From contig JAWPMN010000001.1 of NCBI GenBank assembly GCA_033344895.1, forward strand, positions 4,224,001 through 4,288,000: a DNA stretch of 64,000 nucleotides. Direction: 5' to 3'. The position numbers and the translations under genes are program-made. Each line of letters starts with the position of its first letter. The first letter of the stretch is position 1. The notes under the pieces are model-generated. The model worked only from the letters and a program-made list of their open reading frames with translations, did not search any database and had not been told where the DNA came from. This document shows, piece after piece, positions 7,979-12,705 of this stretch. Origin of the DNA: Alphaproteobacteria bacterium. GTDB taxonomy: Bacteria > Pseudomonadota > Alphaproteobacteria > UBA8366 > Aestuariispiraceae.

Positions 7979-9496
7979 TCACCCCGTCTTCGGGCGCAGC
8001 CGGCATCCAGGGCGAACCTTCCTGAAGGCCAAGCTTGCGGGATCGGCATAGACCGGGCCGGGGGCGGCGACCGTCAGAACGTCACGGGCCAGCGGTGCGA
8101 AATCGGCGCGAAAGTGCACGGAACTTTTCAGGCCGAGTATGCCGACCTGCGAGGGGTCGATTCCGACATGTCGGAACATGGACTGATCGCCCGCTTGCTG
8201 CGGTTTGGATGCCACGACGACGTCCACTCCATCGCGGCGCAGTCGGGCCGAGGGCCCCATTTCATAGCGTGTGCCGCCCCACATGGGACCTGTCCCGGTG
8301 AATTTGCCATTCCCCAGCGCGATCACTTCGAATGGCCCGGAAATGGGTGAATCGCCGGGGAACAGCTTGCCGCCGAGATCCAGTTCCACCGTCGCGCCGA
8401 CAGGATAGCGATGCGCCTTTTCAGCGCTTTCCGGGTCGTTCAACACACCGATTGCGGCACCGCCCGGAACCGACCCCGCCCCTCCTTGCAGCAATGCCCG
8501 CAGCAGGCCCGTCGTATCGCCGGGACCGCCGCCACCGGGATTGTCCTGGGTATCGGCGAGCACCACAGGACCGTCCCCGTCACGTCGAAGCAGGTCCCTG
8601 GACTTATGAATCGCTTCATCCGGGGTCCAGATCCGCGATCCGAACTGGGCCTCGCGGGCGTTGACCGCGTCGATCAGCGCATCGGCCGCCCGGTTCGCGG
8701 CCGCGGCATCGTCCCCGTATGCGACAAGCCCCGGACCAACCTCAGCAATGTCGGACAACGGGAATCCCATTGCGAGCGCAAGTGCATTCAGGTTCCGATC
8801 TCCACTCAGCAGGCCCGGCAGGGTCTCTCCATAGAGGGTTTTCGGCGGGTCGATGTCGGTACAGCCGAAGTTGAGAGGGACCAGAAATTCAGTGCGCCGG
8901 AACGCCTTGGCCCATTTGCCACCCCCGGCAATCAGTTGCAGCAAATGGCGCGCGGTCCGGGCGCCGGTTTCCCCCATATCGACATGCGGATAGGTTCGAT
9001 AGATGTCGAGCACATCGGCATGACGAACCATTGCCTCAGTCAGGTTGGCGTGGAGATCCAGACTGACGGCGATCGGCAGGTCCGCGCCAACAAGGTCCCG
9101 AATGCGGCGCAACAGTTCCCCTTCGCCGTCTTCGAAATGGTCGCAGACCATCGCCCCATGCAGATCGAGATAAATCCCGTCCAACGGCGCGGCCACCGCC
9201 GCAGCTTCTATATCTTCCAGCAGCATGGCGGAAATGCGCTCAAAGGCGTCTTCCGTCACATGGGCCGAAGGGGTCGCCGCGGACCAGCACAGGGGCAGGA
9301 CTTCCGCCCCCGCGTCGCGCAGGGTCTTCAGCGCACCCGATACCGGGATATGAACCCCGTCGACAGCTTTCAACATGGCTTCGCCGCGCGACAGTCCTGG
9401 CCAGCCCCCCGAACGTTCGAATGCTGCAAAATCCGCCTTTACCGGCGCGAATGTATTGGTTTCATGCTGAAATCCACCGACCGCGACCCGCGCCAT
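7979..9496 (-). CDS. M81 family metallopeptidase (MlrC-like)
   Basis: 505-aa member of the MlrC/microcystinase C family (DUF1485 plus MlrC C-terminal domain). Features: VGGFQHETNTFAP near residue 10 carrying a probable metal ligand, GIYLDLHGAMVCDHFEDGEGELL, AVSLDLHANLTEAMV, DIYRTYPHVDMGETG and the C-terminal DTQDNPGGGGPGDTTGLLRALL. MlrC hydrolyses linear peptides in microcystin breakdown, but most homologues act on unknown small peptides or amides. No mlrA, mlrB or mlrD is nearby, so microcystin degradation should not be assumed. It is divergent from the 2OG-oxygenase gene, and the 43-base gap holds both starts. Confidence 0.88.
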   Translation of the reverse strand: MARVAVGGFQHETNTFAPVKADFAAFERSGGWPGLSRGEAMLKAVDGVHIPVSGALKTLRDAGAEVLPLCWSAATPSAHVTEDAFERISAMLLEDIEAAAVAAPLDGIYLDLHGAMVCDHFEDGEGELLRRIRDLVGADLPIAVSLDLHANLTEAMVRHADVLDIYRTYPHVDMGETGARTARHLLQLIAGGGKWAKAFRRTEFLVPLNFGCTDIDPPKTLYGETLPGLLSGDRNLNALALAMGFPLSDIAEVGPGLVAYGDDAAAANRAADALIDAVNAREAQFGSRIWTPDEAIHKSRDLLRRDGDGPVVLADTQDNPGGGGPGDTTGLLRALLQGGAGSVPGGAAIGVLNDPESAEKAHRYPVGATVELDLGGKLFPGDSPISGPFEVIALGNGKFTGTGPMWGGTRYEMGPSARLRRDGVDVVVASKPQQAGDQSMFRHVGIDPSQVGILGLKSSVHFRADFAPLARDVLTVAAPGPVYADPASLAFRKVRPGCRLRPKTG

Positions 9497-9539: not shown

Positions 9540-10412
9540 ATGAACGCCTATTGGAAAAGTGTCGTGCGCGGTTATTCTCGCCGAATGCGAGACGCAGCAA
9601 AGGCCAAGCAAGACACTTCGGAACTGACCCGCTTGCGGGAGGTTGGATGGTGCCGGTTTGCAGCCGATGCCGATCTCATCCGCTGGATACACGACAGTCG
9701 CGCGACCATAGATCAAAGCATCCGCGATCCGGAAAATGCCCATTGGCTGCGCTATGACGACACCTGGTTCGCGGGGGTTAATGTCCTGCCCAATGACGAC
9801 CGGGGCGCGGTGCCGAACGGACCGCCCCTTTCAGGCCGGGCCATCTCCTTCATTCACGAGCGGCTGGGCCATCGCACCCTGCCCTGGGACCGGGCACAGG
9901 TATCGGTCTGCTATCCGGGCTACCCGCGACCGGTGAACGAAGAATCCGATGCTGTCTTCGCCTTCCGGCGTGACAGGGATGCTGCCCATATCGACGGCTT
10001 GCTGAAGGACGGGCCGGACCGGCGGCGCTATCTGCGCGAACACCATGCCTTCATTTTGGGCATTCCCGTTTCGACACACGATGACGGTGCAGCGCCTTTC
10101 ACGGTCTGGGAAGGATCCCATCGTCTGATCGGCGGCTGGCTGCGCGATCGATTGCGCGATATCCCGACCTGCGACTGGGGCAAATGCGATCTGACCGAGG
10201 AATACACCGCCATCCGGCGTGAGGCATTCCGATCCTGCCGTCGGGTTCCGATTCCGGCCCAACCGGGGGAGGCCTATCTGGTGCACCGACATGCACTGCA
10301 CGGCATGGCACCCTGGGCGGACGGCGCCGCATCGGACTCTGGCGGCAGGATCATCGTCTATTTCAGACCGCCCATGAACAATTTGGAGGCATGGCTTTCG
10401 GCGTCCGACTGA
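9540..10412 (+). CDS. 2OG-Fe(II) oxygenase, phytanoyl-CoA dioxygenase-like
   Basis: 290-aa protein with the jelly-roll oxygenase iron triad pattern: H150 and D152 in DAAHIDGLL, a distal His in HRHALHGMAPW (about residues 249-259) and a 2-oxoglutarate-binding Arg in GGRIIVYFRPP (about 270-276). WEGSHRLIGGWL resembles the SGSH region of the PhyH family. The substrate is unknown. The next gene starts about 20 bases downstream and a methyltransferase follows it, so a three-gene tailoring cassette is likely. The first 15 residues are basic, and a start at the internal Met16 is possible. Confidence 0.78.
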   Translation: MNAYWKSVVRGYSRRMRDAAKAKQDTSELTRLREVGWCRFAADADLIRWIHDSRATIDQSIRDPENAHWLRYDDTWFAGVNVLPNDDRGAVPNGPPLSGRAISFIHERLGHRTLPWDRAQVSVCYPGYPRPVNEESDAVFAFRRDRDAAHIDGLLKDGPDRRRYLREHHAFILGIPVSTHDDGAAPFTVWEGSHRLIGGWLRDRLRDIPTCDWGKCDLTEEYTAIRREAFRSCRRVPIPAQPGEAYLVHRHALHGMAPWADGAASDSGGRIIVYFRPPMNNLEAWLSASD

Positions 10413-10432
10413 AGGCCGGGAAACCGCAGAAC

Positions 10433-11899
10433 ATGGAACTGAACGGCAGATCACTCTCTCCGGAAATACTGGCCTCCGTATCGAAAGACGGGACGACGCT
10501 GTCCTTTTCGCCCAACGGCCGGAACATGTTGGATCGGTCACGTGCGATCATCGACAAGGCGATAGCGGATGCCGTGCCGATTTACGGTGTCACGACCGGT
10601 CTCGGCTCCCGTGCGACGGAAGCCCTGAATGCCGATGCACTATCCGGGTTTTCCGTGGAAACCCTCAACGGTCGCGCCCACGCCCTGCCCCCCGCCCTGC
10701 CGCGATCGGTCGTACGCGCCGCCATGGCGGTGCGACTGAACACCTTCCTGATCGGCGCTGCGGGCGTGTCCCCGGCTGTCGCCGAACATCTTCGTTTAGT
10801 GTTCAATGCGGGCCTGACACCGGTTGTGGGGCGTTGGGGGACCATCGGTGCCGCGGACCTGCTGCTCGGCGCAACGATGGGACGGGCGGTGATGGGACTT
10901 GGCGGCCACCTGGCGGATCAGGACGGAGCGGAGCGGCCGGCCGCCGACGCTTTGGCGGAAGGCGGCCTGACGCCACCGGCACTCGGCCCCAGGGACGGGC
11001 TCGCACTCGCCAATCACGCCTGTTTCAGCGCGGCACTGGCAGGGCTGGCCGTGGCAGAGGCTCGCCGCGCCCTGCAAAATCAGACATCCGTCGCCGCCTT
11101 GTCCTTCTTCGCCTTTGGCGGCAATGTCACCCCGCTCGATCCGTCGGTCCTCAAGCTTAAGCCCCATTCCCATGATGCGCGGGTCGCCGCGCGCTTCCTG
11201 ACATTGCTGGAAGGGTCGCCACTTGCAGACCCCGCAAACGCGCGTCGCCTGCAGGACCCGATCTCGATCCGGAATGCGGTACAGGTTCTGGGTTCCGCCG
11301 AACGCAGCCTTGCGGAAGCCGCGGACGTCACGACAACGGAACTGAATGCCGCCAGCGACAATCCGGCCGTCCTGGTCGACGAAGGACGCGTCGTGTCGAC
11401 CGGCAACTATCACACCCCGCATCTGACCTTGGCCTGCGACTATGCCGGACGCGGGCTCGCCGCGACGGCAACGCTTTCCACCGCCCGGTTTGCCCGTCTG
11501 TGTACGGAACGGCTGACCGGCCTGCCACAGTATCTGGCTGACCCGGAAGTCGGCACAAACGGATTCGCGCCACTCTTGAAGCTGGCGGAATCGCTCCTGG
11601 GCGGCATACAGCATCTGACCCAGCCGACAGCGGTCTGGCCCAGCATCAACGCCGATGGGGTGGAAGACGGCCTGACCCTCGCCCTTCTGTCGGCCAGCAA
11701 CTTCATGGAAGCCGCATCCCTAAGCCGACGCATCACGGCGCTCGAAGCTCTGGTAGCCGCGCAGGCCTGCGACTTGCGCGGTGCTAAATTACCGCACAGA
11801 TTGTCGGACCTGCATGAGGCAATCCGTGCGGTCAGTCCGCGCATCCGCGAGAGCCGCCCTCTCGCGGACGATATCGAACGAGTGGCAGAGGCAATCTGA
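10433..11899 (+). CDS. Aromatic amino acid ammonia-lyase homologue lacking the MIO triad
   Basis: 488-aa protein of the HAL/PAL/TAL fold. Family landmarks: IYGVTTGLGSRATEAL, LNGRAHALPPALPR, ELNAASDNPAVLVDEG, GNYHTPHLTLACDYAG and INADGVEDGL. The Ala-Ser-Gly that cyclises to the MIO electrophile is replaced: where GSVGASGDL is expected the protein reads GRWGTIGAADL (residues 133-143), and the NGT segment is NHAC (about 194-197). Classical deamination by MIO chemistry is therefore unlikely. I chose ATG 10433 (MELNGRSLS) since it gives the family N terminus. The upstream ATG at 10391 overlaps the oxygenase and has GGAGG only two bases away. It is followed after two bases by a methyltransferase. 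Confidence 0.8.
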   Translation: MELNGRSLSPEILASVSKDGTTLSFSPNGRNMLDRSRAIIDKAIADAVPIYGVTTGLGSRATEALNADALSGFSVETLNGRAHALPPALPRSVVRAAMAVRLNTFLIGAAGVSPAVAEHLRLVFNAGLTPVVGRWGTIGAADLLLGATMGRAVMGLGGHLADQDGAERPAADALAEGGLTPPALGPRDGLALANHACFSAALAGLAVAEARRALQNQTSVAALSFFAFGGNVTPLDPSVLKLKPHSHDARVAARFLTLLEGSPLADPANARRLQDPISIRNAVQVLGSAERSLAEAADVTTTELNAASDNPAVLVDEGRVVSTGNYHTPHLTLACDYAGRGLAATATLSTARFARLCTERLTGLPQYLADPEVGTNGFAPLLKLAESLLGGIQHLTQPTAVWPSINADGVEDGLTLALLSASNFMEAASLSRRITALEALVAAQACDLRGAKLPHRLSDLHEAIRAVSPRIRESRPLADDIERVAEAI

Positions 11900-11901
11900 C
11901 G

Positions 11902-12705
11902 ATGGATGAACAAAGCGAAACCAACCGACGGAACTGGGACGAGCGTGTCGGCATCCATATCGGCGACCGCAGCGGAATCTACAATGTGGAGGCCTTTCTG
12001 CGCGGCGAGACCGGGCTTCTGCCGCTTGAACTTGCGGAGATCGGCGATGTGGCAGGCCTGACGGTCGCCCATCTGCAATGCCATTTCGGCATCGACACCT
12101 TGTCCCTGGCACGCATGGGAGCTCAGGCAACCGGTCTGGATTTCTCGACATCCGCCATCGCCGCCGCACGAGAGCTGGCGCAGCAGGCAGGGATTCAGGC
12201 GGAATTCGTGGAAGCCAATGTCTATGACGCCGCAAAGCATCTGACACCGGGTGACTTCGATCTGGTTTACGTGAGTTGGGGCGCCATTAACTGGCTGCAG
12301 GATATCGGCGCCTGGGCGGCGACGGTATCGACCATTCTGAAACCAGGCGGCCGGCTATTCGTGGCCGAGGGCCATCCCGCGTTGCTTCAACTGGAGGAAA
12401 TCGACGGGCAACTGGTCGTGACCTATCCCCTGGATACGACGCTTCGGTTCCGGGAGGAGAAGACTTACGCGGGCGATGGGCAACCCATGCACAACAGGGA
12501 CACCTTCGAGTGGATCCATTCGACGTCCAGTCTGATCACGGCACTGTTGGACAACGGCATGCAACTGACGTCCTACCGTGAACATGACAGCCTGCCCTGG
12601 CCCGCCGTGTCATCCATGACACAAGGGGACGACAGGATGTTCCGCATGCCAGAGGGCAAGGCCTCACCGCCCCTGGCCTTCACCCTGTCAGCCAGCAAGC
12701 TCTAA
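11902..12705 (+). CDS. Class I SAM-dependent methyltransferase
   Basis: 267-aa Rossmann-fold methyltransferase. The SAM-binding motif I region is VAHLQCHFGIDTLSLARMGAQ (about residues 54-74), with motif Post I at ATGLDFSTSAI and an acidic/aromatic motif at GDFDLVYVSWGAINWL. The family is the unspecialised Methyltransf_11/25 type, so the acceptor (N, O or C) is unknown. It follows the lyase homologue by two bases and should be co-translated with it, suggesting action on the same small molecule. The end overlaps the convergent GNAT gene by four bases. Confidence 0.85.
   Translation: MDEQSETNRRNWDERVGIHIGDRSGIYNVEAFLRGETGLLPLELAEIGDVAGLTVAHLQCHFGIDTLSLARMGAQATGLDFSTSAIAAARELAQQAGIQAEFVEANVYDAAKHLTPGDFDLVYVSWGAINWLQDIGAWAATVSTILKPGGRLFVAEGHPALLQLEEIDGQLVVTYPLDTTLRFREEKTYAGDGQPMHNRDTFEWIHSTSSLITALLDNGMQLTSYREHDSLPWPAVSSMTQGDDRMFRMPEGKASPPLAFTLSASKL

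What the first reader, a model, noticed from the sequence alone, without database searches (positions are those of the whole stretch)
10433..11899. Ammonia-lyase homologue without the MIO-forming Ser
Seen: the Ala-Ser-Gly triad is GAA within GTIGAADL (codons at 10847-10855), and the NGT segment is NHAC, while other landmarks (YGVTTGLGS, GNYH, VEDG) remain. Known: HAL/PAL/TAL enzymes and MIO aminomutases need the autocatalytic MIO from ASG (or close variants). Inference: the protein may do different chemistry, be a binding protein, or use another catalytic path.
Basis: partly seen in the sequence, partly recalled or inferred. Interest (0 to 1): 0.75.

Follow-up and report, generated by a model that had tools for sequence, protein, structure and literature searches.

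The report
Cofactor-free relative of histidine ammonia-lyase
The gene encodes an intact protein of the histidine ammonia-lyase family whose sequence cannot form the family's built-in cofactor; it is related to ergothionase, which removes trimethylamine from its substrate without that cofactor, and its own substrate is not known.

Summary
Window 10433-11899 encodes an intact PF00221 protein (E 4.5e-106). Against P. putida HAL the Ala-Ser-Gly triad is Ala-Ala plus a one-residue deletion, not a plain substitution. The gene looks constrained (dN/dS 0.11). In 62 aligned rows, 35 (window included) share the shortened loop and loss of Tyr280; 31 of them also have a new lysine (window K383). T. denticola ergothionase, reported to lack MIO, shares all three. 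With those columns removed, a tree separates window-type, ergothionase-type and triad-bearing enzymes. Arg replaces His83 in 34 of the 35 rows. The lyase goes with one ornithine-cyclodeaminase-family (OCD) gene: nearby in 22 of 29 loci, and in the same 7 of 14 genomes of the window's family, the window's own included, where it lies elsewhere. Five of eight fetched plasmid relatives are annotated 'histidine ammonia-lyase'. Best reading: an ergothionase-like, MIO-independent lyase expelling a good leaving group, probably trimethylamine, from a betaine-type amino acid. Substrate unproven. Missing MIO is not new to the family; I found no description of the OCD-linked clade in the library searched.

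The parts
10433..11899 (+). MIO-less PF00221 lyase-like protein, 488 aa (an upstream in-frame ATG at 10391 is also possible)
10841..10858 (+). Shortened MIO loop T137-I-G-A140-A141-D142; equivalent of HAL S139-V-G-A-S-G-D with Ser143 replaced and one residue deleted
10583..10585 (+). Tyr51 codon (HAL Tyr53), present in 35 of 35 shortened-loop rows
10673..10675 (+). Arg81 codon (HAL His83; ergothionase His): Arg in 34 of 35 shortened-loop rows, the exception being L003
11261..11263 (+). Ile277 codon (HAL Tyr280; ergothionase Leu)
11579..11581 (+). Lys383 codon (HAL Val386; ergothionase Lys in the same column)
11663..11665 (+). Glu411 codon (HAL Glu414), present in 35 of 35 shortened-loop rows
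11902..12705 (+). SAM-dependent methyltransferase directly downstream; kept beside the lyase in the one close orthologous locus (79% identity, dN/dS 0.09); no match in the other 19 lyase loci compared
9540..10412 (+). 290-aa protein directly upstream, resembling a 2-oxoglutarate/Fe dioxygenase by eye only (recalled motif); no Pfam or PDB match; kept in L031 (67% identity), not in the other 19 lyase loci

Best explanation
The gene encodes an active, MIO-independent lyase of the PF00221 fold, related to ergothionase but outside its clade. SHOWN by sequence: the MIO tripeptide is gone, Tyr280 is lost, a lysine stands where ergothionase has one, and general active-site residues (Tyr51, Gln274, Arg280, Glu411) are kept in a constrained gene. 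INFERRED: with no electrophilic cofactor to activate ammonia as a leaving group, the enzyme acts on a substrate that already carries a good leaving group, most likely a trimethylammonium (betaine) form of an imidazole amino acid, such as ergothioneine, an S-oxidised form of it, or hercynine. Acid/base catalysis by residues including Lys383 and Glu411 would expel trimethylamine and give a urocanate-like acrylate. Arg81 in place of HAL/ergothionase His83 suggests a substrate that differs from ergothioneine itself. The enzyme probably works in a catabolic route together with an OCD-family, presumably NAD(P)-dependent, enzyme that this genome encodes at another place.
For: Shared loop deletion, aliphatic 280 and Lys with ergothionase 6s7j: deletion in 35 of 35 window-type rows and 5 of 5 ergothionase-type rows; Lys in 31 of 35 and 4 of 5; Lys in 0 of 17 ASG/SSG rows and 0 of 5 'GY' rows. 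Trait-free tree: ASG+GY on one side at 100/100, ergothionase clade 100/100, window clade of 28 rows 93/93. High-confidence HAL-fold model, pLDDT 91.3. OCD subfamily gene near the lyase in 22 of 29 loci. In the window's family the lyase is in 7 and OCD in the same 7 of 14 genomes; of 385 class genomes, the 11 found with a shortened-loop lyase are all among the 26 found with OCD. OpuAC (glycine-betaine type) transport genes near six clade members; hutC beside two. The ergothionase-clade lyase of Polaromonas also has an OCD gene of this subfamily (63% identity).
Against: No substrate or activity was tested. The window clade has Arg, not ergothionase's His, at 83, and mostly Asn rather than Ser at 195 (25 of 35). 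It is not inside the ergothionase clade. In phmmer, two HALs score above ergothionase (172 and 166 against 154 bits), P. putida HAL below it (146), so raw similarity does not favour ergothionase. The fold search ties HAL and ergothionase (Z 42.7 / 42.6). Four of 35 rows lack the Lys (L003, L050, L130, L132), as does L129. OCD occurs in 15 class genomes where no shortened-loop lyase was found at the threshold used. OpuAC transporters can also carry histidine (recalled), so they do not prove a betaine. The window locus has no OCD or transporter beside it that I identified. That the ergothionase lysine is catalytic is recalled; the paper was not held.
Confidence: 0.55

Rival explanations
1. It is simply an ergothionase: ergothioneine to thiourocanate plus trimethylamine (a special case of the best explanation).
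For: Shared deletion, aliphatic 280 and Lys; the OCD gene is also found beside the Polaromonas ergothionase-clade lyase.
Against: Separate clade; Arg instead of His83 in 34 of 35 rows; 27% identity to 6s7j. LLM monooxygenases beside three rhizobial members suggest a different or modified substrate.
Confidence: 0.2
2. It is a MIO-less lyase, hydratase or hydroaminase on an unrelated substrate (not a trimethylammonium compound), for example an N-substituted amino acid handled together with the OCD-family enzyme, or a biosynthetic step with the neighbouring methyltransferase and dioxygenase-like protein.
For: OCD is the one partner shown to co-vary with it; the methyltransferase is kept beside it in one relative with dN/dS 0.09; MIO-free C-N lyases of the fumarase/adenylosuccinate lyase group are held to be distant relatives of this fold (recalled; Z 12-13 is no better than for unrelated helix bundles there).
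Against: The ergothionase-type lysine and loop are kept in most rows; the methyltransferase was seen only at the window and one relative among 21 loci.
Confidence: 0.25
3. Pseudoenzyme or binding protein.
For: Loss of the cofactor triad.
Against: Tyr53, Asp145, Gln277, Arg283 and Glu414 equivalents in 35 of 35 rows; dN/dS 0.11; relatives lie among metabolic and transport genes.
Confidence: 0.07
4. A working MIO ammonia-lyase using a different triad.
For: Some homologues carry a full-length variant triad (ACG in L136, L140, L141).
Against: The window loop is one residue shorter with no Ser or Cys, and no such triad exists elsewhere in the protein; RxPAL S153A lost MIO and practically all activity (PMC3903478, passage).
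Confidence: 0.02

Closest known systems
Ergothionase (ergothioneine trimethylamine-lyase), T. denticola, PDB 6s7j/6s7q
   Same: PF00221 fold; one-residue deletion of the MIO triad; Tyr280 to aliphatic; Lys in the HAL-386 column; Glu414 kept
   Different: Window has Arg for His83 and Asn (not Ser) at 195, lies in a separate clade, 27% identity; substrate untested
Histidine ammonia-lyase HutH (P. putida 1gkm/1b8f)
   Same: Fold (1b8f Z 41.4), Tyr53, Asn195, Gln277, Arg283, Glu414
   Different: No ASG, no Tyr280, no His83; NCBIfam hutH score 298.8 bits against a cutoff of 539.15
'Histidine ammonia-lyase' genes on rhizobial and Martelella plasmids (L113-L116, L118) near an OpuAC-type transporter, OCD and, in four of five, a PhnD/SsuA-like protein; LLM oxidoreductases in three
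   Same: Same clade, same loop deletion, Lys, OCD partner
   Different: 33-38% identical to the window protein; the window locus has no OCD or such transporter beside it that I identified

Membership tests
MIO-dependent aromatic amino acid ammonia-lyases/aminomutases (HAL, PAL, TAL) | PF00221 domain and fold | tested here: met
   E 4.5e-106; fold Z 42.7
MIO-dependent aromatic amino acid ammonia-lyases/aminomutases (HAL, PAL, TAL) | Ala-Ser-Gly (or close variant) triad forming MIO | tested here: not met
   A140-A141-gap; no such triad elsewhere in the protein
MIO-dependent aromatic amino acid ammonia-lyases/aminomutases (HAL, PAL, TAL) | Tyr280 (HAL numbering) | tested here: not met
   Ile277; Tyr in 17 of 17 ASG/SSG rows, 0 of 35 shortened-loop rows
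HutH equivalog (TIGR01225) | score above curated cutoff | tested here: not met
   298.8 bits against 539.15
Ergothionase | MIO-less shortened loop | tested here: met
   Same one-residue deletion
Ergothionase | Lys in the HAL-386 column (catalytic role recalled, not read) | tested here: met
   K383
Ergothionase | Placement in the clade holding 6s7j | tested here: not met
   Ergothionase clade 100/100 without the window; window clade 93/93
Ergothionase | His83 and Ser195, as in 5 of 5 ergothionase-clade rows | tested here: not met
   Arg81 and Asn194
Ergothionase | Trimethylamine elimination from ergothioneine | not testable with these tools
   needs an enzyme assay
OCD-coupled, Arg83-type MIO-less PF00221 clade (defined here) | Deletion, Arg83, Lys386, aliphatic residue at 280 | tested here: met
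OCD-coupled, Arg83-type MIO-less PF00221 clade (defined here) | Subfamily OCD gene in the same genome | tested here: met
   71% identical OCD at G000:C1:4028165-4029148

The most novel reading that the evidence does not exclude
A widespread, uncharacterised subfamily of MIO-independent PF00221 lyases (Arg83-type; seen here in alpha- and gammaproteobacteria and one Streptomyces) carries out a new betaine-lyase reaction in an unknown catabolic pathway that depends on one OCD-family enzyme, and several of its members are annotated as histidine ammonia-lyases. A bolder version, which the unrooted tree does not exclude: the cofactor-free enzymes are closer to the pre-MIO ancestral state of the family.
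Probability: 0.45. Interest if true: 0.65.

Novelty: new variant of a known kind. Interest (0 to 1): 0.5.

Why it matters
Absence of MIO in this family is known from ergothionase, but here is a second, OCD-linked branch that automated annotation can call histidine ammonia-lyase (five of eight plasmid loci fetched), so predictions of histidine use at such loci may be wrong. If the branch releases trimethylamine it would add an unrecognised source of that compound in soil and sea, and its active-site differences (Arg at 83, Lys at 386) give a direct test of how lyase chemistry works with and without the built-in electrophile.

Tried and rejected
Frameshift or sequencing error: judged unlikely. 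Hidden alternative triad: none in the protein. Fold search as a discriminator: HAL and ergothionase tie. PhnD/SsuA-like and FA_desaturase-family proteins as partners: they recur near clade lyases and the window genome has both, but all 14 of 14 family genomes have a match with or without the lyase, so they carry no co-occurrence evidence. Ergothioneine biosynthesis in the same genome: no EgtD-family (PF10017) match, neutral for a catabolic role. The 290-aa upstream protein: no Pfam match at E 1 and no PDB match at E 1.

Literature: the held library was searched; I saw listings, and passages of PMC13405746, PMC3903478, PMC9967237 (a reference entry only) and PMC7653990. None of what I saw describes the OCD-linked clade, but the main ergothionase papers are not held (a further DOI likewise), so absence from print is not established.

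Limits of the counts. A first neighbourhood pass missed the upstream 290-aa gene in the orthologous locus through a wrong-strand ORF choice; one search corrected it. Of 63 aligned rows, one search counts 62: L129 (wrong ORF picked) is left out; L135, L136, L140 and L141 were never in the alignment (no ORF picked). In one search L129 has the shortened loop and Arg but Ser in the Lys column; L135 has the shortened loop, Arg, Lys and Phe at 280; L136, L140, L141 carry ACG. Near-identical rows (for example L025 and L026) are counted apart, and L003, counted among the 35, is not placed with the window clade by the tree. Fourteen near-duplicate or mis-picked rows were dropped before the tree. A second lyase query over the same 385 genomes found 17 at E 1e-55; two of its genomes not in the first list (G077, G286) were not read for motif.

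Full report
The observation. Window 10433-11899 translates as one open frame of 488 residues with a full-length PF00221 match (8-465, E 4.5e-106). It scores far under the curated cutoff of the HutH equivalog (298.8 against 539.15 bits). The triad region reads GTIGAADL, with codons at 10847-10855 as stated. Aligned to P. putida HAL and 41 other rows, HAL A142-S143-G144 matches A140-A141-gap: the serine is replaced and one residue is missing. No other such triad exists in the protein. The closest orthologue (82%, L031/L024) has the same loop, and dN/dS between the two is 0.11, with dS about 1.2.

It belongs to a group. The genome carries three PF00221 matches: L001 with the canonical GASGDL, the window gene, and L003 with GSVGASDL, also shortened. 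Relatives at 36-46% identity in named genomes (L032-L048, L050) and the eight plasmid loci fetched first (L111-L118) all have the shortened loop. Of 63 aligned rows I sorted 62 by the triad columns (L129 left out): 35 window-type (the window and L003 among them), 5 ergothionase-type, 17 ASG/SSG, 5 'GY'. In the 35 the deletion is in 35, position 280 is I/L/V in 35, Arg replaces His83 in 34, Lys stands in the HAL-386 column in 31 (exceptions L003, L050, L130, L132), and Tyr53, Asp145, Gln277, Arg283 and Glu414 are in 35. The 5 ergothionase-type rows share the deletion (5), Leu280 (5) and Lys (4), but keep His83 (5) and have Ser195 (5). The ASG/SSG rows have Lys in 0 of 17.

Tree. With the trait columns removed (49 rows), ASG plus GY rows form one side at 100/100, the clade of T. 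denticola ergothionase with L145-L148 is 100/100, and the window-type clade of 28 rows is 93/93. L003 is a long, unresolved row. An earlier tree with those columns in (43 rows) gave one side for all non-ASG rows with weak support (72/41), ergothionase there being a long, uncertain branch. One MIO transition is therefore not ruled out, and the window protein is a neighbour, not a member, of the ergothionase clade. The root is unknown, so loss and gain of MIO cannot be told apart.

What is known of MIO-less enzymes. PMC13405746 (passages) states that ergothionase lacks MIO and breaks ergothioneine into trimethylamine and thiourocanic acid. The structural paper (Maurer 2019) was not held; that its lysine is one of four essential residues is recalled. 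PMC3903478 (passages) reports that a Ser-to-Ala change in the triad of a PAL removes MIO and practically all ammonia-lyase activity. PMC7653990 (passages) also describes ergothionase.

Partner gene. One OCD/mu-crystallin subfamily gene (63-100% identical to the query) lies in the fetched neighbourhood in 22 of 29 window-type loci, some of them close relatives of one another. The seven without it are the window, L024/L031, L028, L033, L034, L036 and L038; for three of those genomes (G000, G004, G012) it lies elsewhere. In one search it was beside 14 of the 21 lyase loci compared. In the window's family of 14 genomes, the lyase (E at or under 1e-70) and this OCD (E at or under 1e-60) are in the same 7 (1 in 3,432, 2.9e-4; kinship not corrected). 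In 385 class genomes the A1 profile found 20 at E at or under 1e-90: 11 carry the shortened loop, 4 GY, 2 ASG and 3 ACG (G000 directly). The 11 are all among the 26 genomes with OCD (hypergeometric 1.3e-14, kinship not corrected); 3 of the 4 GY genomes are too, and 12 OCD genomes have neither at that threshold. The nearest solved relatives of the own-genome OCD are archaeal alanine dehydrogenase and pyrroline-2-carboxylate reductase, so a reductase or deaminase role is likely.

Operon hints on substrate. Five plasmid loci hold an OpuAC-type ABC transporter component near the lyase and OCD, and three of them LLM flavin oxidoreductases. P. entomophila has an OpuAC protein upstream of OCD and the lyase. 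Two loci have hutC adjacent, and an ergothionase-clade gene of Paracoccus lies beside hut genes. Polaromonas has YeiH, lyase, OCD and a PhnD-like protein together. These favour catabolism of an imported, perhaps quaternary-ammonium, histidine-like compound. They are hints only; OpuAC systems for histidine are known (recalled). The PhnD-like and desaturase-like genes proved universal in the family (14 of 14) and were discarded as co-occurrence evidence.

The window locus itself. A methyltransferase follows the lyase after two bases, and a 290-aa protein with no Pfam or PDB match precedes it. Both are kept in L031 with dN/dS 0.09 and 0.25 but matched no other of the 21 lyase loci compared. Whether they act in the same pathway is unknown. 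No EgtD-family match was found in the genome.

Structure. AlphaFold2 on 24 aligned rows gave pLDDT 91.3 and pTM 0.92, lower in residues 51-60 (62), 131-140 (73) and 401-410 (64). Solved HALs and ergothionase tie as best matches (Z 42.7 and 42.6). A monomer model cannot show the active site, which in this family is built from several subunits (recalled).

Verdict. An enzyme-like, MIO-independent, ergothionase-like protein from a distinct Arg83, OCD-coupled clade. That MIO cannot form in the known way follows from the sequence; trimethylamine-type elimination is the likeliest chemistry (about 0.55); the substrate is open.

Noticed in passing
L003:1336-2913 (own genome, G000:C1:2785926-2787503): A second shortened-loop paralogue in the same genome (GSVGASDL, QDPLSFR, His in the Lys column, His at 83); its place in the tree is unresolved.
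   Followed up: partly
L037:16044-17567, L137, L138, L139, L144: A third triad type, GSVGY followed by Leu/Ile with columns 143-145 missing, Leu280 and no Lys; in Leisingera (L037) it lies near a HutC-type regulator. Looks like a separate MIO-less group nearer to HAL.
   Followed up: partly
L136, L140, L141: Full-length homologues with Ala-Cys-Gly in place of Ala-Ser-Gly and Leu at 280.
   Followed up: no
L113-L116, L118 (rhizobial and Martelella plasmids): Genes annotated histidine ammonia-lyase / hutH that lack the MIO triad: likely misannotations.
   Followed up: yes
L147:5929-7569 and 10244-10912: S. meliloti pSymA ergothionase-clade gene (Ala in the Lys column) near a gene annotated dimethylsulfoniopropionate lyase and ABC transporter genes.
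   Followed up: no
window 9540-10412: 290-aa protein with no Pfam or PDB match, by eye a possible 2-oxoglutarate/Fe dioxygenase; conserved upstream of the lyase in one relative.
   Followed up: partly
L031 (CP051228.1): Record titled Mesoflavibacter (by name a flavobacterium) holds the syntenic orthologous locus with an 82% identical lyase, while other family relatives found are titled Rhodospirillaceae, Rhodospirillales, Alphaproteobacteria or Hwanghaeella; the title may be wrong.
   Followed up: no
window 7979-9496 (-): M81/MlrC-family metallopeptidase gene beside the operon, syntenic in L031.
   Followed up: no
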